From contig JAFUWV010000004.1 in assembly GCA_017477325.1 (NCBI GenBank), forward strand, positions 17,494-81,493: a DNA stretch of 64,000 bases, read 5' to 3'. Below, one piece after another: positions 48,552 to 60,300 of this stretch. The notes beneath the pieces are model-generated. The model was not told where the DNA came from. It saw only the letters and a program-made list of their open reading frames with translations, and made no database searches. This DNA is from Paludibacteraceae bacterium (GTDB lineage: Bacteria > Bacteroidota > Bacteroidia > Bacteroidales > Paludibacteraceae). Positions within the stretch are counted from its first letter, which is position 1, and each line of letters starts with the position of its first letter. A program made the position numbers and the translations under genes.

Positions 48552-49811
48552 TTATTTGTTATATATTACTTTGTCGTAGATAGCACGTACTTTGAGTCCG
48601 GCATCGTACCAGCGTATGTTGTTGACTTCTTCGCGTCCGAGTTCGGAGAGCGACTTGTACATGGCCGGATACTTGACGATAGAGTAGATGGCGTCAGCCA
48701 TGGCGTCGATGTCCCAATAGTCGGTTTTGATGGCATGAGTGAGAATCTCGGCGCATCCTGACTGGTGTGAGATGATGCTGGGGCATCCTACCTGCATAGC
48801 CTCGAGAGGCGAGATACCGAAGGGTTCGCTGACAGAGGGCATGATATAGACATCGGACTCAGCGAGCATCTCCTGTACCTGTTTGCCCCGCATGAAGCCG
48901 GGGAAGTGGAAGCGGTCGGCGATACCCCTCTTTGCAACGAGGTCGATCATCTCGTTCATCTTGTCTCCTGAACCAGCCATGACGAAGCGGACACCCTTTG
49001 TCTTAGCCAAGACACGAGCAGCGGCCTCGACAAAGAACTCAGGTCCTTTCTGCATAGTGATACGTCCGAGGAAGGTGACGATTTTGTCTTTACGCGGATG
49101 CTTCTGGAACTCTTCAGGATGCGGAAGCGGTTCGACAGCATTGTGGACAGTGGAGACTTTGCGCGGATCCTGATGGTACTTCTCGATGACGGTGTTTCGT
49201 GTGAGGTTGCTGACGCACATTATATGGTCCGCCTCGTCCATACCCCGCTTTTCGATAGCATAGACGGTAGGATTGACGTTTCCGCGGGAGCGGTCGAAGT
49301 CGGTAGCATGGACGTGTATGACAAGCGGCTTGCCGGAAATATGTTTGGCAAAGACACCTGCGGGATAGGTGAGCCAGTCGTGCGAGTGAATGATATCGAA
49401 GTCGAGGCTGTGAGCGAGCACAGACGCTACTGCCTCATAGTTGCCAATCTCTTCGATGAGGTTGTCAGGATAGCGTCCGGAGAAAGCGACGCAGCCGAGG
49501 TCGTCGGTACCGATACGAGTGAAATCGTAGTGAATACCATTACGTAGATGATAGTATTCTTCGGGTGACATACGTCCCTGCATGCGGCGGCGGACATAGT
49601 CGTAGTCGTTGTCTTTCCAGACGATAGGTACGGAGTTGGCTCCAATGATACGCAGGAAAGACTGGTCTTCGTCGCCCCAAGGTTTAGGAATGACAAAGGT
49701 GATGTGCATATCTTCCTGTTGTGCCATTCCGCGGGTGAGTCCGTAGCTGGCAGTGCCGAGACCGCCAAGGATATGGGGAGGGAACTCCCAACCGAACATT
49801 AGTGCATTCAT
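48552..49811 (-). CDS. GT4 glycogen synthase-like glycosyltransferase
   Basis: 419 residues, GT-B fold. Seen: MNALMFGWEFPPHILGGLGTA at the start, HSHDWLTYPAGVFA (about 137-150), the FLGRITMQKGPEFFVEAA hinge to the C-terminal half, and MPSVSEPFGISPLEAMQVG with the donor-binding ExxE-like site. In Bacteroidetes this GT4 enzyme stands in the glycogen cluster and is believed to extend alpha-1,4-glucan. It starts inside the stop of the debranching-enzyme gene (4-nt overlap), so the two are translationally coupled. Confidence 0.9.
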   Translation of the reverse strand: MNALMFGWEFPPHILGGLGTASYGLTRGMAQQEDMHITFVIPKPWGDEDQSFLRIIGANSVPIVWKDNDYDYVRRRMQGRMSPEEYYHLRNGIHYDFTRIGTDDLGCVAFSGRYPDNLIEEIGNYEAVASVLAHSLDFDIIHSHDWLTYPAGVFAKHISGKPLVIHVHATDFDRSRGNVNPTVYAIEKRGMDEADHIMCVSNLTRNTVIEKYHQDPRKVSTVHNAVEPLPHPEEFQKHPRKDKIVTFLGRITMQKGPEFFVEAAARVLAKTKGVRFVMAGSGDKMNEMIDLVAKRGIADRFHFPGFMRGKQVQEMLAESDVYIMPSVSEPFGISPLEAMQVGCPSIISHQSGCAEILTHAIKTDYWDIDAMADAIYSIVKYPAMYKSLSELGREEVNNIRWYDAGLKVRAIYDKVIYNK

Positions 49812-51760
49812 TCTTTATCCTCCTTAGTCATTTGTTCAACAGTTTTGATTACAGATATGACGGCCGCCACAGATGGTGCATAAGACATGCCTCCATGTCC
49901 TTTGTATGGCGGGTTGCCGTCGTAAATCTCATTGAGAGTGCCGATGCAGAGTTCTGACATCTCGACCTCGTATCCAACGAGCAGCCGTTGCATAAATCCG
50001 AGTCCGCTATGACGATACACATTAGTATAAGCGCGTGCGTAAGCAGCGATGGTGCATGGCCAAACGGGTCCGTTGTGGAAGTTGTGGTCGCGCTCGTGCT
50101 GTCCGCCGATATATACAGGGCGATAGTCTCCGCTCTTTGGAGAGATGGTACGGAGTCCGCGCGGCGTGAGCAGTTCTTTGGTACAGATGTCAACGACTGC
50201 CTTCTGCTGCTTGCGGTCAAGCGGAGAGTAAGGCAGTCCGGCAGCCCAGATCTGGTTGGGTCTGACTTCGCGATTCTGATAAGCGTCAACGACATAGTCG
50301 TAGAGATAGACGCCGTTCCAGAAAGTATCGACGAAGGCGCTTTTGCAGAGCTCAGCCTGATAAGACATGAGGTCGGCGCGATGTTCTTGTCCGAGCTGGC
50401 GTAGAACATCTGCTGTGAAGCAGAGAGCATTGTACCAGAGAGCGTTAATCTCGACGACATAGCCGGTGCGCGGCGTGATAGGTCTGCCATTTTCGACAGC
50501 ATTCATCCATGTGGCAGGGCGCTCGGTGCCGTCAACCCATACGAGTCCGTTGGAATGGAGGAACATGCGCGGATGCTTCTGCTTACGGATGAACTCGATG
50601 ACGTCGGCACAGAGCTGTCCGTATTTCTCAGCCGCTTCTTTCATGCTACTATATGTTGCATACTGCTGTATGGCCCGGATGAACCAAAGCAGGACATCTG
50701 GTTCGTCCATATCAGCAAGGCGAATCTTGTCGTATTCTCCCTCGAGGAAGGCACGGACTTCATCGACAGCAGTCTTGTCCATGATAGCCTCCCAGTATTC
50801 GGGTCGGTCGATTTGGAGAGTGCATGAGGGTAGTGAGAAAAACTGTTCGCGTGCGGTAGCCTTGAACCAAGGGTAGCCTGCGAGCAGGTGGCACTTGTCG
50901 CCCTCGCGCTTATAGAATTGAGCAGCAGAGTTCTTGAGGCATGCGAACATGTCGGTGCGAGTGATGCGCCGGAGTAGTTCTTTGTCCCAAGTCTGCTTGA
51001 GAGTGCGAGGGTTGACTTCGGTTATGCCTGCGGCGAAGATGACTGACTCCCCTTTCTTCATAGGCAGTTCGAACCAGCCAGGTACGAGCAGGTCTTCTTT
51101 GAACTCGTAGCCGCGTTCCTGCTCTTTCTGGTACTCGATATCTTTGTACCAGTGAGGTTCGTGGGTGTAGGTAACCTGCTTTGAGAACTGCATGAAGAGT
51201 TGCGGGAACTCGGGGTACATCCGGTTGACTCGTCCGCACTGCACTTCGTCCATATTGCTGTTGGCACGCGGATTCTCGTGTGTCAACTTGTTGACACTGC
51301 GGAAGGCGAGGAATGGCCGGAAGCGGAGTGTGGTAGGCGAGTGTGCCTCGACGAGGGTGTAGCGAATGAGCACACGCGGTTCGAAACTGACGAGCATGCG
51401 TTCTTTGGTGAGTATGACACCTCCGACGCGATAGGTAGTACGCGAGATGACTTCGCAGTCGAACTCACGGATGTACTTATGCCCGTTGGGGGAGAAACGG
51501 TTTTCTCCATATTTATGGAGCCCGAGATTGAACTCGGCTCCGTGCTGAATCACCGTCTCGTCGAGCGAGGAGAGGAGGACATAGTTGTCGTCGCTCAGTT
51601 CGGGGAGAGGGAGAACCAACTGGCCGTGGTACTTGCGAGTGTTGCAGTCAACGAGTGTCGAACTGTTGTACACGCCTGCACGGTTGGTACGGATCATCTC
51701 TTTGGAGAGCGACCGCTCCAGGTTGATAAGCAGTGACTTGTCGAAATTAAGGTATGACAT
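49808..51760 (-). CDS. Glycogen debranching enzyme (amylo-alpha-1,6-glucosidase)
   Basis: 650 residues. N-terminal domain with NRAGVYNSSTLVDCNTRKYHGQL split over two strands; the (alpha/alpha)6 GDE_C domain begins around residue 300. Seen: AGYPWFKATAREQFFSLP, DEPDVLLWFIRAIQQY, WMNAVENGRPITPRTGYVVEI and HNGPVWPCTIAAYARAY. It removes alpha-1,6-linked glucose at glycogen branch points. First gene of the three-gene glycogen operon, with a -7-like TAAATTTG about 185 nt upstream. Confidence 0.93.
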   Translation of the reverse strand: MSYLNFDKSLLINLERSLSKEMIRTNRAGVYNSSTLVDCNTRKYHGQLVLPLPELSDDNYVLLSSLDETVIQHGAEFNLGLHKYGENRFSPNGHKYIREFDCEVISRTTYRVGGVILTKERMLVSFEPRVLIRYTLVEAHSPTTLRFRPFLAFRSVNKLTHENPRANSNMDEVQCGRVNRMYPEFPQLFMQFSKQVTYTHEPHWYKDIEYQKEQERGYEFKEDLLVPGWFELPMKKGESVIFAAGITEVNPRTLKQTWDKELLRRITRTDMFACLKNSAAQFYKREGDKCHLLAGYPWFKATAREQFFSLPSCTLQIDRPEYWEAIMDKTAVDEVRAFLEGEYDKIRLADMDEPDVLLWFIRAIQQYATYSSMKEAAEKYGQLCADVIEFIRKQKHPRMFLHSNGLVWVDGTERPATWMNAVENGRPITPRTGYVVEINALWYNALCFTADVLRQLGQEHRADLMSYQAELCKSAFVDTFWNGVYLYDYVVDAYQNREVRPNQIWAAGLPYSPLDRKQQKAVVDICTKELLTPRGLRTISPKSGDYRPVYIGGQHERDHNFHNGPVWPCTIAAYARAYTNVYRHSGLGFMQRLLVGYEVEMSELCIGTLNEIYDGNPPYKGHGGMSYAPSVAAVISVIKTVEQMTKEDKE

Positions 51761-51989: not shown

Positions 51990-52453
51990 TTATTGTTTTA
52001 TGAATTTTGCTTGCAGTTGTTCACCATCAACGGTTATTGCACGAACGATATACATTCCAGAAGGCAATGAAGAAACGTCTATCTCTGTTTTTGTGGTTTG
52101 CAATACAGGTTGTCCGCTTAGAGAATAAAGTCTAATAGAAAATACTTGTTCTAAAGTATATATTCTAAAGATATTATTAACGATGTCAAAAGTTAAATTC
52201 GAACAACAATTCCCGACATCATTCTGATCATGACCTTTAGTTCCAGAACTTGCCACTTGATGTTTCATGTATCGTCTATTCATTCTACGCGATGTAGAGC
52301 AAGATATATCTTCATTCTCCCCTGACAACATCTTTTGGAACATCATTGCAATACTCAGGGCTTCTGTTTTGAAACCTGCTGAGCAGAAATATTTCCAGCA
52401 CCTAATAGGAAAAGCAAGAATATATATATATTAAATTTAATCTCGAACTTCAT
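51990..52453 (-). pseudogene. Frameshifted remnant of a T9SS-secreted (C10-protease-like) protein
   Basis: ATG 52453 opens a clean signal peptide (KFNIYIFLLFLLGAGNISAQ) then QVSKQKP and a TGA at 52357-52355. One frame over, translation continues as TEALSIAMMFQKMLSGENED and ends in a T9SS type A sorting domain (VFSIRLYSLSGQPVL, SSLPSGMYIVRAI) stopping at 51990. Adding one base in the AAAA run at 52367-52370 would join them as QVSKTEALSIAMMFQ, like the propeptide start of C10 (streptopain-like) proteases. Only about 80 residues lie between the two parts, so a catalytic domain is missing: both an indel and a large internal deletion. Programmed -1 frameshifting is a less likely alternative. The start overlaps the upstream gene by 17 nt. 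Confidence 0.65.
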
Positions 52454-53246
52454 ACGTCCATTTTTTTAATTCATTCTTTGATATTAATGTATTAATAGCA
52501 ATTGCATATTCAGAGAAAAGACTATCAACAAGATTAGCATAGCTATCATATTCATCAGCACCTCCTTCTTTATATTTTATGAATGCTGTTTCATTAAAAC
52601 CGCAATCTAAATAAACATACTTACATGTATTATCAAAATTATTCGGAGTGTAAGTCTCAATATAAGTAAGCGGTGATTCGTCACCTGACATATATCTTTC
52701 TAATGCTTGACATGATATTGTTCTCCATTCATCGACACCAAAATTATTCCACACATCACTATTATTCCATATCTGAGACAAAGAATCTAAATCTTCCCAT
52801 GGGGTATTCATCACGAAAAAGTGAGCAACAGAATTATATGCAATATTTCGCTTGTTATGGTACAGGTTTTTTGATGATATTGGGAGATAATCTTGCCAAC
52901 GCCAATCTACAAGTAAATAATCATTAGATAACTCAATATAGGGGGTACTGCCTATAAGACCACGCTTTTGGTTAAATTGTTTCTCAATATCTGAACCTTC
53001 GTAAATCAATTGATAACTTGTTGTATCAAAAACATAATTCACATTACCGAGTGAGCCGTCGAAGTACGTAATGGTCGGATCAATTATCGGATGAGCAGCT
53101 ATAATCTTTGTCTTGTATAAAGGATCTTTATATTTAATAACGTATAATGGAACATCATCTGATAATCTTATATCTGGGTTATTATTAGAACATGATAAAA
53201 ACAATAATAGTATGGTGTTAAATAATATAACTCGTATTGTATTCAT
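52437..53246 (-). CDS. Predicted lipoprotein of unknown function
   Basis: 269 residues with a lipoprotein signal (TILLLFLSC, followed by SNNNPD). The mature part is hydrophilic and rich in Tyr, Asn and Asp (YFDGSLGNVNYVFD, IYEGSDIEKQFNQKRG, YLLVDWRWQDYLPI); no family recognised. Conserved-looking features are a WEDLDSLSQIWNNSDVWNNFG segment and two cysteines near the C-terminus (NTCKYVYLDCGF). It overlaps its upstream neighbour by 4 nt, so it is part of the M4-peptidase operon. Confidence 0.75.
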   Translation of the reverse strand: MNTIRVILFNTILLLFLSCSNNNPDIRLSDDVPLYVIKYKDPLYKTKIIAAHPIIDPTITYFDGSLGNVNYVFDTTSYQLIYEGSDIEKQFNQKRGLIGSTPYIELSNDYLLVDWRWQDYLPISSKNLYHNKRNIAYNSVAHFFVMNTPWEDLDSLSQIWNNSDVWNNFGVDEWRTISCQALERYMSGDESPLTYIETYTPNNFDNTCKYVYLDCGFNETAFIKYKEGGADEYDSYANLVDSLFSEYAIAINTLISKNELKKWTYEVRD

Positions 53247-54616
53247 TTTGAAAGTAGTGCTTCTATTTGTTGCTGTTGTTGATTGATTACTTCTTCTTGA
53301 TGTAAGACGTATAGTATTAGTTCCTCAATTTTGCGGAGCAATATTATTTGTAATTCATTTATATTTACGCCCTCTCTTACCATATCATCAGCTGACGGAA
53401 TATCAGGAAGATGCTTGTTTTCATTGATAAAACGTTTTAGTTCGTCCAAAGGCATTAGATTATAACTTTTATCAAATACATAATCTGCACCTTCATTCAT
53501 GTCTACTAATACTTCTTTTGCATGGATTGTTCCATTCACATCTAATTTATATGAAGGATTATTAGTGCCAATCCCTACATTGCCATTGCTATTAAGTATC
53601 GTGACCCGTGTTGTTGGCGAAGATCCGTTTATGGCGGTGTTGAAAGTTTGGAGATATAAGTTTTGTCCTGCACCGCTTGAGAACTCACCATTGGCAACCA
53701 TTATAGGCTTGTAGAAATAGAAACGAGGCATTGAGGTCTGAAAATGTGAGTACGACCAACCTTGTGCACCAATGGTTGTAGTACCTGCCTCTGTTCGTAT
53801 AGTCAATGCACCTAACGCTCCATTCCCTCTTATATTACCATTTATATGCAAAGCCTCTTCCGGTTCGTCTGTCCCTATTCCCACGTGTCCTGCGGTATCT
53901 ATTGTCAGTCTTGGAGTGTCGGCAGTGCGCAACTGAAGGTCACTCTGCCCGTAAGAACCAATTACCCCACCATTTATATACAGCGGTTTGCTGAAGAAGA
54001 AAGCAGGCCGGTCAGTGTAGAAATGCGAGTAGCCAGAATTGGCTGCACCAATCTCCGTTGTACCTGACGTGGTTCGTATGCGCAATGAACCGCTCTCACC
54101 GTCTCCGCGCACAGGTCCGTTGACATGCAGTCTTTCTTGTGGTTGAATGCCGATGCCCAAATTAGAATATATCACTTGGTCGGCTATTCCTGTGTCCGCA
54201 TATCTGTATGAGAGTTTGAATCCGCGATACATCTCGCCAGAATTGCCATACTGAGACACGAGAACTACACGAATGACTTGATTAGAAGTATATACCTGAA
54301 TCCGTCCTGTCATAGGTTGGTAATTGTAGTTCAAGACTTCACGCTCAATATGGTTTTCGTCTTCTGTATAGATATAAAGCGCATCAATCGCACCATTGGG
54401 ATTCAGGTCAATGATGTATTCAAACTCGACATAATTATAGTCTTCCGGAATGGTTATATCCCACTCTTGAACGATACATTCTTCATAGTCAGTCCCCCAA
54501 CATTCAATGCTTGTGCCGGGATTGATGATTGCAGGCTGAACGACAGGGCAATTTGGGTCCGCAAACAAATACAATGGCAGAACAAGACAAAATATATTGA
54601 ACAAATACTTCCTCAT
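53243..54616 (-). CDS. Secreted tail-fibre-like repeat protein
   Basis: 457 residues with a signal peptide (YLFNIFCLVLPLYLFA). A beta-rich N-terminal region (about 20-145) is followed by two or three copies of a segment with GIGTDEPEEALHINGNIRGNG, LTIRTEAGTTTIGAQG and YSHFQTSMPRFYFYKPI (about 150-330). The C-terminus (SYNLMPLDELKRFINENKHLPDIPS, then a Glu/Gln-rich coiled coil) is the usual end of Bacteroidetes proteins resembling phage tail fibres with a degraded endosialidase-chaperone domain. It may form a surface or periplasmic trimer. 4-nt overlaps on both sides place it in the operon. Confidence 0.8.
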   Translation of the reverse strand: MRKYLFNIFCLVLPLYLFADPNCPVVQPAIINPGTSIECWGTDYEECIVQEWDITIPEDYNYVEFEYIIDLNPNGAIDALYIYTEDENHIEREVLNYNYQPMTGRIQVYTSNQVIRVVLVSQYGNSGEMYRGFKLSYRYADTGIADQVIYSNLGIGIQPQERLHVNGPVRGDGESGSLRIRTTSGTTEIGAANSGYSHFYTDRPAFFFSKPLYINGGVIGSYGQSDLQLRTADTPRLTIDTAGHVGIGTDEPEEALHINGNIRGNGALGALTIRTEAGTTTIGAQGWSYSHFQTSMPRFYFYKPIMVANGEFSSGAGQNLYLQTFNTAINGSSPTTRVTILNSNGNVGIGTNNPSYKLDVNGTIHAKEVLVDMNEGADYVFDKSYNLMPLDELKRFINENKHLPDIPSADDMVREGVNINELQIILLRKIEELILYVLHQEEVINQQQQQIEALLSK

Positions 54617-54975
54617 TGCTTCCGTCCTCCCTTTATTCTGTTGTTGATTTCTTCCCGTTTTGTTTGTTGCTTCACCCGCATAGTGGAATATTGTTCGTCA
54701 GTAAGAATGTTCCTGAGTTGCATATTGTATTCCTGCAATGCGGCAGCCTTTGCGGCGACAAGTGCTTTGTCGTCGTCAGAGTACTTGGTATTGGCAGTCT
54801 TCACTGCAGAGATGTAGTGCTCCGCTGCTATATTTAGTGCGTCAGTCTGCTCTGTACTGAGTTGAACATCAGCAGATAGCGTTTGCACCATAGCCATGCC
54901 CGCCGGTTCTGCAGTCTGAGCTATTACACCGACTGTCATGGCGAGCATACTTAAAATAAAAATTGTCTTTCTCAT
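54613..54975 (-). CDS. Small Spy/CpxP-like periplasmic protein
   Basis: 120 residues from ATG 54975, which directly opens a signal peptide (MRKTIFILSMLAMTVGVIAQ); an in-frame ATG at 55005 would add ten polar residues and is less likely. The mature part is helical and charged (LSTEQTDALNIAAEHYISAV, YNMQLRNILTDEQYSTMRV), like the DUF4890/Spy-type helical proteins, but without a clear LTxxQ repeat pair. Role unknown. It ends with an ATGA overlap into the tail-fibre-like gene. Confidence 0.72.
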   Translation of the reverse strand: MRKTIFILSMLAMTVGVIAQTAEPAGMAMVQTLSADVQLSTEQTDALNIAAEHYISAVKTANTKYSDDDKALVAAKAAALQEYNMQLRNILTDEQYSTMRVKQQTKREEINNRIKGGRKQ

Positions 54976-55008
54976 ATGTATAGTATTTTTGATATTTGTT
55001 TTCATTTT

Positions 55009-55464
55009 TTACTCTTGATCATATATTACATTAGTTTCCAATATATGGCAGTGAATATATGTGTCAAGTTCTGTGTCGAAAAAAGTATAATAAACAAATC
55101 CGTTAGCAAGATAGTTCACTCGTCCTTTTTTATTGCCTTCGCAATCATAAATTGACCAGTCAGAGTTGAGAATACCTTTGCTTTCAACCATGTATGCATG
55201 GTCAAAACCGCTAAGTTTAACATATTCGTCAACTCCCTCATTGTTAACGATAATATGTTTTTCAGCCCAGACTTCTGAAATAGCGAGTTTCGATGTTCTG
55301 TTCTGCCGTATTATACTTTTCATCCATTCACATTCGTTCACAGGGTCATCATATCCACATATTCCCCAAGCAGAACTCTCAAACATAGTCCTGCAAGAGG
55401 TAAGAATCACGAAAAAACCTATAACAATAAAAGACTGGAAATATTTAATATTTATCTCTGTCAT
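55009..55464 (-). CDS. WGxCGY lipoprotein family, copy 4
   Basis: 151 residues. Lipobox VILTSC, then RTMFESSAWGICGYDDPVNECEWMK, the conserved block that defines this local family (kept whole: W, CGY, DPVNECEW). It is the most divergent copy: IDLFDTD is replaced and the YDC motif reads IYDCEGNKKG. The ending NVIYDQE matches the NIIYEQ of its paralogues. Predicted to be anchored in the envelope. Overlaps the broken copy 3 by 20 nt. Confidence 0.8.
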   Translation of the reverse strand: MTEINIKYFQSFIVIGFFVILTSCRTMFESSAWGICGYDDPVNECEWMKSIIRQNRTSKLAISEVWAEKHIIVNNEGVDEYVKLSGFDHAYMVESKGILNSDWSIYDCEGNKKGRVNYLANGFVYYTFFDTELDTYIHCHILETNVIYDQE

Positions 55465-55912
55465 ATGTATATATAATATTTTTATGTTTCACTATACATT
55501 TGAAAACCAATTGTCGTTCCTTGTCAAAAAATGTTATAGGTTGACCTATAGAAGTTCCGCTACACAAACATTCACCATTGCAGTCATAAGTATGCATATC
55601 GTATATGTCAAAAGGAGGAAGAACATCATCAAAACAAATTTGATATGCATATAACACCTCATCTGTTTTTTCATATCTTATAGTATCTGTCTCTTCTATG
55701 CGTATATATTTTTCAGCCATAACTTCAGCAATACGAAAATTCCGGTTTTTATTCTGCCGGATAATCTTTTGCATCCACTCACATTCGTTCACAGGGTCTT
55801 CATAGCCGCACAGCCCTCATGATTCTCTAATTGAGGCCGTTCGACAAGATGAGAAAAACATCACAAAAGGAATAAAAAAGCATAATATGTTTAGAAACCA
55901 TCTATTGCTCAT
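55445..55912 (-). pseudogene. WGxCGY lipoprotein family, copy 3, broken by a nonsense codon
   Basis: From ATG 55912 the frame reads a lipoprotein signal (FFIPFVMFFSSCRTAS) and then, at codon 32 (55819-55817), TGA where the three paralogues have TGG for the Trp of AWGLCGY. Past the stop the frame is fully intact: GLCGYEDPVNECEWMQKII and on to 55445. A single base change therefore removes the protein unless TGA is read through. Reinitiation at GTG 55792 would lose the signal peptide. Confidence 0.85.
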
Positions 55913-56339
55913 ATATAATATTTAAATCTATTATTTTACCAGTGAAAAATTGTCCAGACTCAGAGTAAAATATGGGGGACCCTACACCATATCCGGAATT
56001 CAAATATTGCCCATTACAGTCATAAGAATCTGTATCAAATAAGTCATATGTAAATATACCTGTTAATTCACAAGTTATCTGATATGCATACATCAACTCA
56101 CCTGTTTTCTCATAATATACGGAGTCTGTTTCTCGTATTAAAATATCCTTTTCCGCTACGACTTCGACTATTTGCATTCTTTTTGTTCTGTTCTTCCGGA
56201 TAATCTTTCGTATCCATTCGCATTCATTCACCGGGTCTTCATATCCGCACAGTCCCCATGCAGGAGAGACAGAAGCTGTTCTGCAAGACGACAGAATCAA
56301 CATCATCACAAATATATAGGAAATACTTCTCTTTTTCAT
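55902..56339 (-). CDS. WGxCGY lipoprotein family, copy 2
   Basis: 145 residues. Signal MKKRSISYIFVMMLILSSC with lipobox, then RTASVSPAWGLCGYEDPVNE and CEWIRKIIRKNRTK. Further shared blocks: VVAEKDILIRETDSVYYEKTG, ELMYAYQITCELTG, YDLFDTDSYDCNGQYLNSGYG and a final NIIYEQ. About 65-70% identical to copy 1 by eye. Four to five conserved cysteines suggest disulfides outside the cytoplasm. It begins inside the stop of the M4 peptidase gene (ATGA), which ties its translation to the protease. Confidence 0.85.
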   Translation of the reverse strand: MKKRSISYIFVMMLILSSCRTASVSPAWGLCGYEDPVNECEWIRKIIRKNRTKRMQIVEVVAEKDILIRETDSVYYEKTGELMYAYQITCELTGIFTYDLFDTDSYDCNGQYLNSGYGVGSPIFYSESGQFFTGKIIDLNIIYEQ

Positions 56340-58549
56340 TCCTTTATAAACTTTTTATATAGTATGTTCTTTCCATTTGATATAGATATAATGTATATGG
56401 CATCTTTCAAATCAGTTGTGGAAATGCAAGTGGTTTCGGGGGCAAGTATTCCAACCTTGATAAGTTTACCATGTACATCGTATATCTTATAAGCTGACAT
56501 GTTTTCTGAAAGATTTTGTATGTTCAATTTATCAGTACATGGAATAGGGTATATTTGTATATCATTGTTTGGCTTGGTTTGTGTTTCTTCTGATTCAGAA
56601 TCATGATATTGAGGCATACTTAGCGGAGCAAGATAGGAAGACGGTGACGAAGATGGAGATGACGTGCATGGTTCGATATATGCATGGAAATTTGAACCGG
56701 GTTCTGCTCTGAATCCGGGTCCTAAATGAATAACCCTGCCCGATTTATATTCCACATTGCTTCCTGCCTCTATGGTATTGTCGGCATAAATAGAATCCGT
56801 AGCGCAGAATACACGTGATTCTCCTGATTCTATTGTTTGAGTAATGTGAAGAATATCGTCAATATTCAATTCTATATTAATACCTACCGCATTCCAAGCA
56901 TCCACAACACTTCTTGCTTCGTTAGAACACATACCATACAATTCTATCGCAGCCTCACGGGTATATAATGCAGCCTTGCTGTAATCAGTAAACATCGTAA
57001 AATAGTCTGTGAGAGCCTTATATACTATTTGTTCCGATTTATCGAAGCCTACGCCTGTTACATCATACGAATCTCCCTTGTCATTTGTTCCACTTCCTCC
57101 TTCTGTCAATAGATAGAACCAATAGTTCATGACTCCACTATTCCAATGTACTCCGCCATTATCATTAAAAATGTTATAATCTTTCCAAGAAATACCTTTG
57201 TACATATTAGGGCATACATAATATGCTGTATCAGAATTCCGAGGATTTTTTAGAAAGCGGCTAGCCTTATTATCCATGCGTGATTCATAGTCATGCCACC
57301 AGATTTTTTTTGATGGTGCCGCATAGTGTTTAACGCATGCTCCCCATATATCGCTTAGTGATTCATTTATGGCACCGGGTTCGTTTTTGTAAATCAATCC
57401 TGCAGAATATTGTGTAACCGCGTGCCCAAATTCATGAGCAACAACATCTATACTAACATACGGGTTATAATCAATCCCATCACCATCTCCTAATTTTATA
57501 ACAAAACCATTCCATTGAGCATTATTGGTGCCAGTTTTTCCGTCTTTTCTATCCTTGTATGATAACCAATGTACATACATTTTGAGAGTTTTATTGTTGT
57601 CATTATAACTTTTTCTTCCAAACTTTTCATAGAAATAATCAATTGTTTTCGCTGCTGCCCAATGTGCATCCAATGCCACATCATCACCCGTTGGAGACAT
57701 CTCCGCAGAAGTCCAGTTGTTGTCATTATCTGTTATCTCCCTATGATACAATACTGTATTTGAATGGTTTTCGAGGCTATAGGTATATATGCTTGTATTG
57801 CCATTGCAACGTGTGTGGTCATGTAAGTAGTATTTGCTGTTTTTATATATGGTTTCAACAGGTTGTGTTCCGGAATATCTTGTTTCGGCAGTGCCCGTGT
57901 ATTCACAGATATTAGACAACGAATATAAAACGGCACCTGTCTGGGCATCTACATATACATCAGAATTTATTTCAGGTGCGATGGCAACAATATTAAACTT
58001 GTATGCCAATCTGGGAGCGGAAAGAGTGTCTTCAATATCTGTCGGACAGATCACAAGTTCTCCGACAGGTTGACTCTTTAGTTCCGGAGCACCGATGGAA
58101 TCAAAGTATTGCAAACTATCCGTTTGCCAGCTATATAAGTCAGCATCAATATAATTAATGGCAGCATTACGTGCTGTGGTTTCAGAAATTCCCGGAGTAG
58201 TACTTACATTAATGTTATTAAACCGCTCTCCATTCACTGATACTATGTAACCATCTTTCTTATGAACATTGATTTGGCAGAACTCCAAAGGAATATTGTT
58301 ATATTTCAGTCGATAAGTGAAGTGTTGCCAATCGGTAGTATTGTTATTAGCCGCTTGCATATTCCGGTGCATCAAGTGTGTGGTTTCATACTTGTTCACA
58401 TCAACACCATAATGAGCAGAAATCCAATCATCTATTGAAATTGAGGAAGATATAGGTATCTGCTCAAAATAAGACATTTGCGAGTATGAATCTATGCTCA
58501 ATAAAAGTAGTAATACTACAAGCAATATTCTATCTGTATTCTTGTTCAT
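56336..58549 (-). CDS. T9SS-secreted M4 (thermolysin-family) metallopeptidase
   Basis: 737 residues in order: signal peptide (about 1-24), FTP/PepSY-type propeptide (about 50-215), M4 catalytic domain (about 225-560), a beta-rich linker with a Ser/Pro-rich stretch, and a T9SS type A sorting domain (about 660-737, IQIYPIPCTDKLNIQNL to the basic FIKE end). The catalytic set is complete: HEFGH (His372, Glu373, His376), Glu396 in GAINESLSDIWG, and His468 in GGVHWNSGVMNYW. It should be exported through T9SS and act outside the cell or on its surface. It overlaps lipoprotein copies on both sides (20 nt and 4 nt). Confidence 0.93.
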   Translation of the reverse strand: MNKNTDRILLVVLLLLLSIDSYSQMSYFEQIPISSSISIDDWISAHYGVDVNKYETTHLMHRNMQAANNNTTDWQHFTYRLKYNNIPLEFCQINVHKKDGYIVSVNGERFNNINVSTTPGISETTARNAAINYIDADLYSWQTDSLQYFDSIGAPELKSQPVGELVICPTDIEDTLSAPRLAYKFNIVAIAPEINSDVYVDAQTGAVLYSLSNICEYTGTAETRYSGTQPVETIYKNSKYYLHDHTRCNGNTSIYTYSLENHSNTVLYHREITDNDNNWTSAEMSPTGDDVALDAHWAAAKTIDYFYEKFGRKSYNDNNKTLKMYVHWLSYKDRKDGKTGTNNAQWNGFVIKLGDGDGIDYNPYVSIDVVAHEFGHAVTQYSAGLIYKNEPGAINESLSDIWGACVKHYAAPSKKIWWHDYESRMDNKASRFLKNPRNSDTAYYVCPNMYKGISWKDYNIFNDNGGVHWNSGVMNYWFYLLTEGGSGTNDKGDSYDVTGVGFDKSEQIVYKALTDYFTMFTDYSKAALYTREAAIELYGMCSNEARSVVDAWNAVGINIELNIDDILHITQTIESGESRVFCATDSIYADNTIEAGSNVEYKSGRVIHLGPGFRAEPGSNFHAYIEPCTSSPSSSPSSYLAPLSMPQYHDSESEETQTKPNNDIQIYPIPCTDKLNIQNLSENMSAYKIYDVHGKLIKVGILAPETTCISTTDLKDAIYIISISNGKNILYKKFIKE

Positions 58550-58982
58550 ATATAATGTTTGAATCTATTATATCACACCTGAAAATATGTCCAGACTCAG
58601 GATCTTTATAAAATATAGGGGATATATCACCGTATCCTGAATCCAAATATTGCCCATTACAGTCATAATAATCTGTATCAAATAAATCAATTGTATATTT
58701 ACCAGTTAATTCACAGGATATCTGATATGCATACATCAACTCGCCGGTTTTCTCATAATATATAGAATCCGCTCCTCTTATCTGAATATACTTTTCCGTC
58801 ACAACTTCTTCAATGATCATTCCCTTTGTTCTGTTCTGCCGGATGATCTTTCGCATCCATTCACATTCATTCACCGGGTCTTCATAGCCGCATAGTCCCC
58901 ATGCAGGAGAGACAGTGGTTGTTCTGCAAGAGGACAGAAACAGCATTAACATTAATATGTAAAGGGCATGTATTTGTTTCAT
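58530..58982 (-). CDS. WGxCGY lipoprotein family, copy 1 (first operon gene)
   Basis: 150 residues from ATG 58982: signal ALYILMLMLFLSSC with lipobox, then RTTTVSPAWGLCGYEDPVNE, CEWMRKIIRQNRTK, YIQIRGADSIYYEKTGELMY and YDCNGQYLDSGYG. No known family recognised; the W-x-x-I-I near the N-terminus and YDCxG near the C-terminus faintly recall small Bacteroidetes proteins of the ELPWLK/YDCEG type. A longer frame from 59006 overlaps the -7 box and is rejected. The gene ends 20 nt inside the M4 peptidase gene. Confidence 0.85.
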   Translation of the reverse strand: MKQIHALYILMLMLFLSSCRTTTVSPAWGLCGYEDPVNECEWMRKIIRQNRTKGMIIEEVVTEKYIQIRGADSIYYEKTGELMYAYQISCELTGKYTIDLFDTDYYDCNGQYLDSGYGDISPIFYKDPESGHIFRCDIIDSNIIYEQEYR

Positions 58983-58994
58983 CTTCAACATGTA

Positions 58995-59002
58995 CAAATG
59001 TA
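58995..59002 (-). promoter_or_regulatory. -7 box of the M4-peptidase/lipoprotein operon
   Basis: TACATTTG on the minus strand, ending 12 nt before the ATG at 58982, so the leader is very short. No internal match as good was seen in the 7-kb operon. Confidence 0.5.
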
Positions 59003-59020
59003 ACAAATTATTGCTTTTGA

Positions 59021-59090: not shown

Positions 59091-60179
59091 CTAATTGTAT
59101 TTGCCGTCGAAGTTGACTTGCACGTCGTTGACCATCTGGCGTATCTGCTGTTCGTTTTGTTTGCGGCAGATGAGCAGTACTCCCTGGTTCTCGGCAACGA
59201 TATAGTCGTCGAGTCCCTCGATGACTGCCAGTTTTCCGCTCTCAAGTGTGACAATGTTGCTTTGTGAGTCGTAGAAGAGGGCTTCGCTATGAAGAGAGAC
59301 GTTGCCTTGTGGGTCTTTGTCGGAGAGGTCGTAGAGCGAGCCCCAGGTGCCGAGGTCTGACCAACCGAAATCGGCAGCCATGACCATGACGTTGGAAGCT
59401 TTCTCCATGACTCCGTAGTCGATAGAGATGTTGGGACAGAGGGGGAAATGCTCTTGAATGAATGTTTCTTCAGCGGGTGTGCCGAAGATGTCGGCACCTT
59501 GGTCGAACTGCTCCATGACGAGTGGAAGATACTGGTGTAGGGCTTTCATGACAGCCTGCAGGTTCCAGAGGAACATACCTGAATTCCACAGGAACTCGCC
59601 ACTGCGGACGAAGACCTCTGCGAGTTCGCGGTTTGGTTTCTCAGTAAAAGTCTTGACGACAAGGATATTGCTTTCGTTGCCGGTTTGTGGAGTTTCGAAC
59701 TGTATGTATCCATAGCCTGTCTCGGGTCGTGTGGGTCTCATGCCGAGAGTGAGCAGAGAATCGTGTCCGGCGACATAGTTGAGCCCCTCGGTAATGATAC
59801 GCAGGAACTCGGGTTCGTTGGTGATTAGATGGTCGCTTGCGGCAACGACAATGTTGGCATTGTCGGTGAGTGCCTGTATTCTTGACATGGCATAGGCGAT
59901 GCACGGGGCAGTATTGCGCCGGCAGGGCTCACAAAGGATTTGTGAGGAGCTGATGTCGGGTATCTGCTCAAGGATGAGGTCGCGGTAGGCGACATTGGTA
60001 ACGATAAGAACGTTTTCGATAGGTACGATAGGTCGGAAACGGTCAACAGTCATCTGCAGCAGAGAGCGTCCGGTACCGAAGAAGTCGAGGAACTGTTTGG
60101 GCCGGTCGTTGCGTGAGAAGGGCCAGAAACGGCTACCTATTCCCCCTGCCATGATGACGCAGTAGTTGTTGTTTATCAT
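59091..60179 (-). CDS. manC: Mannose-1-phosphate guanylyltransferase
   Basis: Makes GDP-mannose from mannose 1-phosphate and GTP, the precursor of GDP-fucose and mannosylated glycans. 362 residues from ATG 60179, without the C-terminal isomerase domain of bifunctional forms. Seen: VIMAGGIGSRFWPFSRNDRPKQF (nucleotide-binding signature, split by residues 8-30), VIVTNVAYRDLI-type strand, VVAASDHLI, FTEKPNRE and WNSGMFLWN. The longer frame from 60272 starts upstream of the -7 box and is rejected. It may supply the glycan cluster at 24-30 kb. Confidence 0.94.
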   Translation of the reverse strand: MINNNYCVIMAGGIGSRFWPFSRNDRPKQFLDFFGTGRSLLQMTVDRFRPIVPIENVLIVTNVAYRDLILEQIPDISSSQILCEPCRRNTAPCIAYAMSRIQALTDNANIVVAASDHLITNEPEFLRIITEGLNYVAGHDSLLTLGMRPTRPETGYGYIQFETPQTGNESNILVVKTFTEKPNRELAEVFVRSGEFLWNSGMFLWNLQAVMKALHQYLPLVMEQFDQGADIFGTPAEETFIQEHFPLCPNISIDYGVMEKASNVMVMAADFGWSDLGTWGSLYDLSDKDPQGNVSLHSEALFYDSQSNIVTLESGKLAVIEGLDDYIVAENQGVLLICRKQNEQQIRQMVNDVQVNFDGKYN

Positions 60180-60241
60180 GATAAATAAAGGTACAAAATG
60201 TTGTGTAAGATTGTGTTTTCTCGGGACATAAATGTCCGCCA

Positions 60242-60249
60242 CAAAATTA
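60242..60249 (-). promoter_or_regulatory. -7 box of manC
   Basis: TAATTTTG on the minus strand; start predicted near 60236, about 57 nt before the ATG at 60179. Confidence 0.5.
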
Positions 60250-60300
60250 CTCAGATTTTCTGATATCTGCAAATAGGTTTTTTATGTTTGTGAGCATAAA

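What the first reader, a model, noticed from the sequence alone, without database searches (positions are those of the whole stretch)
51990..59006. Coupled operon: T9SS metallopeptidase with four copies of an unknown lipoprotein family
Nine minus-strand genes, nearly all overlapping by 4-20 nt: lipoprotein copy 1, M4 peptidase, copies 2, 3 and 4, a Spy-like protein, a tail-fibre-like protein, an orphan lipoprotein and a T9SS cargo remnant. The four small lipoproteins share SCRT, WGLCGYEDPVNECEW, YEKTGELMYAYQ, YDCNGQYL and a final NIIYEQ. Copies 1 and 2 are coupled on either side of the protease. Secreted proteases of Bacteroidetes (for example C10 proteases of B. fragilis) are known to be encoded next to small lipoprotein inhibitors. 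I infer that this family may inhibit, tether or chaperone the M4 peptidase. To my knowledge it is undescribed.
Basis: partly seen in the sequence, partly recalled or inferred. Interest (0 to 1): 0.8.

Follow-up and report, generated by a model that had tools for sequence, protein, structure and literature searches.

The report
Surface protease with partner lipoproteins
A gut bacterium carries an inserted gene cassette in which a secreted protein-cutting enzyme is flanked by copies of a small membrane-anchored protein whose relatives often sit directly in front of other protease genes, so these small proteins probably keep the bacterium's own enzymes in check.

Summary
The observation largely holds. 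An M4 (thermolysin-type) peptidase with a T9SS tail overlaps small lipoprotein genes on both sides; four copies of one family are present, copy 3 broken by an in-frame TGA. The window copies match no Pfam or NCBIfam family and are distant kin of DUF6970. The survey test is mixed but non-random. Within the window's taxonomic family, 7 of 20 strong loci (8 of 21 with one weak hit) have an M6 or M4 metallopeptidase gene directly downstream; in two more the domain is fused to an M6 propeptide or overlaps such a fusion gene. Eleven have no such link, and no M4/M6 gene was seen beside 7 relatives elsewhere in the class. Seven other M6 genes are preceded by a freestanding copy of the M6 propeptide. 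The window operon is a low-GC insertion at a site that is empty in 20 of 24 congeneric loci examined; two close relatives carry other cassettes there, one a lipoprotein gene overlapping a C10 peptidase gene. The window's "orphan lipoprotein plus cargo remnant" is the decayed counterpart of that pair. Best reading: potempin-like co-encoded protease partners, most likely inhibitors. Inhibition is inferred, not shown; structure prediction could not be run.

The parts
58530..58991 (-). Lipoprotein copy 1 (ATG 58991 or 58982; lipobox Cys codon starts at 58928)
   Evidence: A2 profile E 4e-49 (the profile contains this copy); overlaps M4 by 20 nt
56336..58549 (-). M4 metallopeptidase with FTP propeptide motif, GCX_COOH and T9SS type A tail, 737 aa
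   Evidence: catalytic motifs; only M4 found in the held genome, 71% complete
55902..56339 (-). Lipoprotein copy 2 (74% identical to copy 1), 4-nt overlap with M4
   Evidence: dN/dS to copy 1 0.26
55445..55912 (-). Lipoprotein copy 3, interrupted by in-frame TGA at 55819-55817
   Evidence: its two pieces were analysed apart
55009..55464 (-). Lipoprotein copy 4 (most divergent, 42% to copy 1)
54613..55005 (-).
   Evidence: 52% identity in L211; no Pfam family
53243..54616 (-). Tail-fibre-like protein, 457 aa; homologue in the G453 cassette
   Evidence: PHROGs tail fibre 3e-14 over part of the protein; 66% identity over 367 aa in L211
52437..53246 (-). Second lipoprotein family, 269 aa; a homologue's gene overlaps a C10 peptidase gene in G453
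   Evidence: 25% over 144 aa to the L211 228-aa protein, E 2e-9 to 3e-11 in small local searches
52355..52453 (-). Signal-peptide-like piece of the decayed gene, overlaps the 269-aa lipoprotein gene by 17 nt, ends in TGA
51990..52346 (-). T9SS-tail piece of the decayed gene; 63 aa 63% identical to the end of the C10 peptidase of the G453 cassette
   Evidence: TIGR04183 6e-11
59091..60272 (-). Flank: mannose-1-phosphate guanylyltransferase-like gene, one edge of the insertion site (name recalled, not searched)
   Evidence: adjacent to the 49808-51760 gene in 20 of 24 congeneric loci examined
49808..51760 (-). Flank: glycogen-debranching-type gene, other edge of the insertion site (name recalled, not searched)

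Best explanation
The four small lipoproteins are co-encoded partners of the T9SS-exported M4 peptidase, most likely inhibitors held on the cell envelope by a lipid anchor. Overlapping genes make inhibitor just before and together with protease, so that enzyme folding too early in the periplasm, or acting back on the producer's surface, is blocked. The whole operon is an acquired low-GC protease/partner cassette, one of several kinds found at the same site in this genus; a second, decayed C10-type peptidase with its own lipoprotein partner lies at its 3' end. Shown: gene layout, homology, repeated placement before zinc peptidases of two families, fusion to an M6 propeptide, insertion at a variable site. 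Inferred: export, lipid anchoring, translational coupling, binding and inhibition.
For: (1) In 358 genomes of the family, profile A2 gives 26 matches with E <= 4e-8, in 20 loci of 13 genomes. In 7 of 20 an M4 or M6 gene follows with overlap or within 10 nt: window M4; M6 in G393, G395, G396, G397, and twice in G401, where it is in pieces. An eighth, G441 (same genus as the window, E 8e-5), also precedes an M6. With 49 M4/M6 genes in 15 genomes and an assumed 1600-2000 genes each, chance of >=8 of 21 is 1e-17 to 6e-17; counting only three independent events, 6e-6 to 1e-5. (2) Two proteins join an M6 propeptide (E 2e-22, 3e-13) to this domain (E 1e-11, 1e-8) where a peptidase would follow. (3) Of 45 M6 genes in 15 genomes, 7 others are directly preceded by a freestanding propeptide copy, the layout of propeptide-type inhibitors. 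(4) Parallels: all six T. forsythia KLIKK proteases are preceded by small putative lipoprotein ORFs (PMC4404884, passages), called inhibitors of the downstream protease in PMC7296668 on data then unpublished, potE accompanying forsilysin (passages; that forsilysin is an M4 enzyme is recalled); bfi1A and bfi1B flank and are co-transcribed with the C10 gene bfp1 (PMC2873492, passages). (5) Relatives carry other cassettes, one with a C10 peptidase, at the same site. (6) The copies differ with dN/dS 0.26-0.44.
Against: 11 of 20 strong loci have no M4/M6 link, including four in G397 and its congener G395, and G472, whose member groups with the window copies. On the tree the linked/orphan label is not clustered (9 changes against 9.3 in shuffles). 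No M4/M6 gene was seen beside the 7 relatives in other families of the class or the three best order-level ones, G300, G340, G297. Only 6 of 45 M6 genes and 1 of 4 M4 genes have a family member directly upstream. T9SS tails on the M6 partners are only weakly matched, below cut-off or absent. The window copies align with the M6-linked set over only 27 columns once signal peptides are left out. No solved structure matched. No structure, expression or binding evidence was obtained.
Confidence: 0.6

Rival explanations
1. Surface tether, receptor or export chaperone: the lipoproteins bind the protease to aid folding, export or retention on the outer membrane without blocking the active site.
For: Same gene layout; fusion to a propeptide, which in secreted proteases also acts as a folding aid (the role is recalled).
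Against: The M4 has its own propeptide motif and T9SS tail, and the M6 partners a propeptide; four paralogous copies at one enzyme are not expected of a chaperone; potempins, the nearest parallel, are described as inhibitors.
Confidence: 0.15
2. Hitch-hikers: DUF6970-like lipoproteins are small surface proteins of unrelated function that ride in low-GC cassettes together with T9SS cargo; the neighbourhood reflects shared mobility, not shared function.
For: Many orphans (11 of 20 loci; 7 relatives); the site is a variable insertion hotspot; Spy-like and tail-fibre-like genes travel along; the link is scattered on the tree.
Against: In the six strong M6 loci the gene stands immediately upstream, overlapping or within 10 nt; two fusions to the M6 propeptide; at 12 of the 17 other C10 matches that were looked at, no small lipoprotein gene stands directly upstream by eye, so it is not a general trait of peptidases here.
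Confidence: 0.17
3. Immunity-like shields: the copies protect the producer against proteases of neighbours, the divergent copies covering different enzymes, rather than regulating the adjacent M4.
For: Divergence among copies (42-74% identity to copy 1), orphan copies away from M4/M6 genes, broken copy 3.
Confidence: 0.08

Closest known systems
Potempins / KLIKK proteases of Tannerella forsythia (PotE-forsilysin in particular)
   Same: Small lipoprotein ORF directly before a T9SS-tailed protease; different catalytic families served; proteases of different family share C-terminal regions (here S8 of L092 and M6 of L028, 30% over 385 columns, E 3e-32; M4 and C10 tails, 24% over 239, E 3e-7).
   Different: The six T. 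forsythia lipoprotein ORFs are reported to share no significant similarity, whereas here one family stands before M4 and M6 and four copies sit at one locus on both sides. No similarity to a solved chain was detected. PotE itself was not available for comparison. T9SS tails of the M6 partners are uncertain.
Bfi1A/Bfi1B-Bfp1 of Bacteroides fragilis (C10 protease with predicted staphostatin-like inhibitors)
   Same: Small predicted inhibitors, one of them a predicted lipoprotein, on both sides of a secreted protease gene and co-transcribed with it (PMC2873492).
   Different: Cysteine rather than zinc protease; predicted staphostatin-like rather than DUF6970-like. The decayed C10/269-aa lipoprotein pair of the window is nearer in protease family, but homology of its lipoprotein to Bfi was not tested.
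Spi-SpeB and other propeptide-type inhibitors (recalled, and named)
   Same: Freestanding propeptide copies precede seven M6 genes in these genomes, one in the window's own genome.
   Different: Other genes; they share with the finding only the position before the protease and the two fusions.
DUF6970 (PF22311) lipoproteins
   Same: Same two motifs; hhalign 98.1%, E 1.4e-13 over 72 columns between the M6-linked set and a DUF6970-like set.
   Different: No M4/M6 neighbours seen for those looked at; the window copies themselves give no Pfam hit.

Membership tests
Potempin-type protease/inhibitor pair | small lipoprotein gene directly preceding a T9SS-tailed protease gene | tested here: met
   window copy 1 and M4; lipoprotein status by lipobox read by eye only
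Potempin-type protease/inhibitor pair | inhibits the protease encoded downstream | not testable with these tools
   needs purified proteins
Potempin-type protease/inhibitor pair | homology or fold shared with a potempin | tested here: inconclusive
   no solved chain matched the profile below E 0.6; potempin sequences not at hand; structure prediction answered busy at every try
DUF6970 (PF22311) | window copies match the Pfam model above its cut-off | tested here: not met
   0 Pfam families for the copies up to E 1; of four distant relatives tested only L109 passes the cut-off
DUF6970-like superfamily | profile similarity over both conserved motifs | tested here: inconclusive
   met for the M6-linked set (98.1%, E 1.4e-13, 72 columns); the window set (with G472) joins the M6-linked set over the first motif only (94%, E 1.5e-7, 27 columns), the second motif being seen in the alignment
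M4 (thermolysin) peptidase | M4 and M4_C domains with HExxH and downstream NExxSD | tested here: met
Bfi (staphostatin-like) inhibitors | staphostatin-like fold and conserved glycine | not tested
   no model could be made

The most novel reading that the evidence does not exclude
A new inhibitor family for zinc metallopeptidases in which the nearly invariant CGxxDP motif enters the active site in trans and its cysteine binds the catalytic zinc, like a cysteine switch supplied by a separate lipoprotein; duplicated and traded with M4 and M6 enzymes in exchangeable cassettes, and in two genes welded to the M6 propeptide. Against it: the motif is kept in relatives with no M4/M6 gene nearby, and a second invariant cysteine suggests a disulfide instead.
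Probability: 0.1. Interest if true: 0.75.

Novelty: new variant of a known kind. Interest (0 to 1): 0.6.

Why it matters
Lipoprotein inhibitors of T9SS proteases are, as far as I recall and found, described mainly from one oral bacterium. If this reading is right, gut Bacteroidota carry a class of protease/partner cassettes with a recognisable family (a branch of the DUF6970-like lipoproteins) that serves two zinc-peptidase families, and a defined insertion site where such cassettes are swapped. It would give DUF6970-like proteins a first testable function and a genomic rule for finding natural metallopeptidase inhibitors.

Tried and rejected
Rejected: copy 3 as a sign of a reassigned TGA; it is a single TGG-to-TGA difference and the other genes of the operon read normally, so a recent pseudogene or a sequence error is likelier. 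Rejected: S8 partnership in G604; the S8 gene lies about 360 nt upstream and the syntenic G602 locus has the lipoprotein without it. Rejected: phage origin of the operon from the tail-fibre-like gene; matches cover only parts of it and it has a homologue in the G453 cassette. Order-level hits such as L102/L103 match mainly through the signal peptide and look like acid phosphatases (name recalled). The truncated ORF in G551 looked to me like the start of a C25 (gingipain-type) peptidase, but no search supported it, so it is left unnamed. The tree leaves 12 of 25 inner branches open; origins of the protease link cannot be counted from it. Scans of genome contigs with the window copies and of viral contigs found no relative. 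Literature: 'potempin' (4 papers), KLIKK, protease inhibitor/lipoprotein/T9SS, DUF6970 (0 papers), Paludibacteraceae and C10 inhibitors listed nothing that, by title or abstract start, describes this family; listings only, except passages of three papers. The main potempin paper (Chem Sci 2023, recalled) was not in the library. No exact match to a recalled Bacteroidota promoter consensus lies in the operon; one precedes the upstream flank gene.

Limits of the counts: the locus count uses the matches with E <= 4e-8 and adds G441 only where said; the genome search scored at most 9-10 candidates per genome, so members may be missed. Absence of M4, M6 or the one S8 type at the orphan loci rests on gene maps read by eye and tblastn; other peptidase families were not scanned there. 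The class-level loci were read by eye within 1.5 kb. In one search two M6 ORFs were skipped as short or cut; G401's M6 in pieces appears twice among 46 ORFs, hence 45 genes; upstream sequence was about 1 kb for many. For the insertion site, loci were given for the 24 best of 53 other genomes with a match. For C10, 12 of 17 other matches were looked at. Signal peptides and lipoboxes were judged by eye.
Full report
OBSERVATION. The minus-strand operon is real. A 737-aa M4 peptidase (58549-56336) has FTP, M4, M4_C, GCX_COOH and T9SS type A sorting domains and intact catalytic motifs. Its gene overlaps copy 1 by 20 nt and copy 2 by 4 nt; copies 2, 3 and 4 overlap by 11 and 20 nt. The held genome, 71% complete, has only these four copies, one M4 and 34 matches to the T9SS type A tail, 32 of them over the cut-off. 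Copy 3 is interrupted by TGA at 55819-55817. Pairwise dN/dS of the copies is 0.26-0.44 by a simple counting method. The operon genes have GC3 0.23-0.45 against 0.60-0.65 in four flanking genes.

FAMILY. The copies match nothing in Pfam (all four) or NCBIfam (copies 1, 2 and 4; the only row, E 0.005 to a spanin model, covers the signal peptide). A profile of the copies finds one clear relative in the genus (G472, E 2e-19) and weak ones in another genus of the same family. An 11-row profile (A2) then finds 26 matches with E <= 4e-8 in 13 of 358 genomes of the family. With signal peptides left out, the window copies plus G472 align with the M6-linked set at 94% probability, E 1.5e-7, over 27 columns around CGxxDPxNxxEW; the M6-linked set and a DUF6970-like set align at 98.1%, E 1.4e-13, over 72 columns with both motifs. 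One of four distant members tested passes the Pfam DUF6970 cut-off. Two motifs recur, CGxx(D/N)PxxxxxW and (Y/F)xCxG, 51-103 residues apart in 24 of 26 rows; L152 lacks the first pattern and in L109 the second pattern hit another site. In the wide alignment one cysteine is invariant and the other over 90% conserved.

NEIGHBOURHOOD SURVEY. The 26 matches form 20 loci. Seven have an M4 or M6 gene directly downstream: the window (M4) and six M6 loci (G393, G395, G396, G397 contig 37, G401 contigs 10 and 47; the two G401 peptidases are in pieces). Two loci carry a fusion of the M6 propeptide with this domain, G603 contig 34 and G397 contig 7, where an ordinary copy overlaps the fusion gene. The other 11 show no M4/M6 link by gene map and tblastn; G604 has an S8 peptidase about 360 nt upstream, which I do not count, and G487 and G472 have short T9SS-tail pieces nearby. 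A weaker 21st locus, G441 in the window's genus, precedes an M6 peptidase. T9SS tails of the M6 partners are weak: L028 E 2e-4, below the Pfam cut-off; L100 E 0.02-0.07 and L088 none. At the level of the class 7 of the 395 other genomes have a relative at E <= 1e-4; I saw no peptidase within 1.5 kb by eye. In the order sample 21 of 392 other genomes have a match at E <= 0.01, many through the signal peptide; the three best (G300, G340, G297) show no M4/M6 neighbour by eye. So the link is frequent but not universal, and was seen only in the window's family.

CONVERSE TEST. In 15 genomes there are 45 M6 matches over the cut-off. Six are directly preceded by a family member and seven by a 109-127-aa protein with a signal-peptide-like start that is a freestanding copy of the M6 propeptide, one of them in the window's own genome. 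The remaining 32 have neither in the stretch seen. Of four M4 genes only the window's has a family member upstream. At 12 of 17 other C10 matches looked at, no small lipoprotein gene stands directly upstream by eye. A rough chance estimate for 8 of 21 is 1e-17 to 6e-17, and 6e-6 to 1e-5 if only three independent events are allowed (the gene number per genome is my assumption).

INSERTION SITE. The genes flanking the operon, 59091-60272 and 49808-51760, lie within 118 nt of each other in 20 of 24 congeneric loci examined, out of 53 other genomes with a match; of the other four, one ends at a contig end, one has no second flank within 1.5 kb, and the two closest relatives by the flank gene carry cassettes. 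In G453 the cassette is a 228-aa lipoprotein gene overlapping by 8 nt a C10 peptidase gene with Inhibitor_I69 propeptide and T9SS tail, then homologues of the Spy-like and tail-fibre-like genes. That lipoprotein is homologous to the window's 269-aa one (25% over 144 aa), and the window's cargo remnant is 63% identical over 63 aa to the end of that C10 peptidase. So the window operon holds two protease/partner modules: M4 with four DUF6970-like lipoproteins, and a decayed gene, best explained as C10, with its own lipoprotein. In G551 the cassette holds two other lipoproteins before a truncated secreted-looking ORF, and a nearby frame still ends in the same tail residues. G453 and G551 are not among the 38 genomes with a match.

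MECHANISM. Best supported is a co-encoded inhibitor of the adjacent peptidase, made first and anchored at the envelope. It rests on layout, repeated placement before zinc peptidases of two families, propeptide fusions and freestanding propeptides in the same gene position, and on the parallels with potempins (PMC4404884, PMC7296668; passages) and bfi1A-bfp1-bfi1B (PMC2873492; passages). Inhibition itself is inferred. Orphan members weigh against a fixed partnership; the linked and orphan labels are not clustered on a poorly resolved tree (9 changes, 9.3 in shuffles). A structure that could have separated an inhibitor fold from others was not obtained, because the prediction service stayed busy through.

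VERDICT. Layout confirmed with corrections; interpretation partly supported and extended; a new variant of a known kind of system rather than a new kind.

Noticed in passing
L115:2832-3161, L116:847-1182, L117:2762-3091, and upstream of the M6 genes in L124, L128, L129, L164: Freestanding copies of the M6 propeptide stand directly before M6 genes in seven cases; the one tested has no Pfam family. They look like propeptide-type inhibitors.
   Followed up: partly
L084:1229-2200 and L095:4687-5409: Genes in which the M6 propeptide is joined to the lipoprotein-family domain with no peptidase domain.
   Followed up: yes
L092:5326-7440 and L028:8214-10766: S8 and M6 peptidases of different genera share about 350 C-terminal residues (30% over 385 columns, E 3e-32), reminiscent of the shared C-terminal region of KLIKK proteases.
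   Followed up: partly
L210:3283-4785 (G551): A third cassette at the same insertion site: two small lipoproteins and a truncated secreted-looking ORF of unknown type.
   Followed up: partly
window 60242-60273: The window has 12 exact matches to a Bacteroidota-type promoter motif (recalled consensus) against 1.45 expected; none lies inside the operon, one precedes the upstream flank gene.
   Followed up: no
L023:10154-11930 (G472): The orphan family member of G472 is followed by a possible relative of the 269-aa lipoprotein (26% over 117 aa) and by a T9SS-tail piece, a layout like the 3' end of the window operon.
   Followed up: partly
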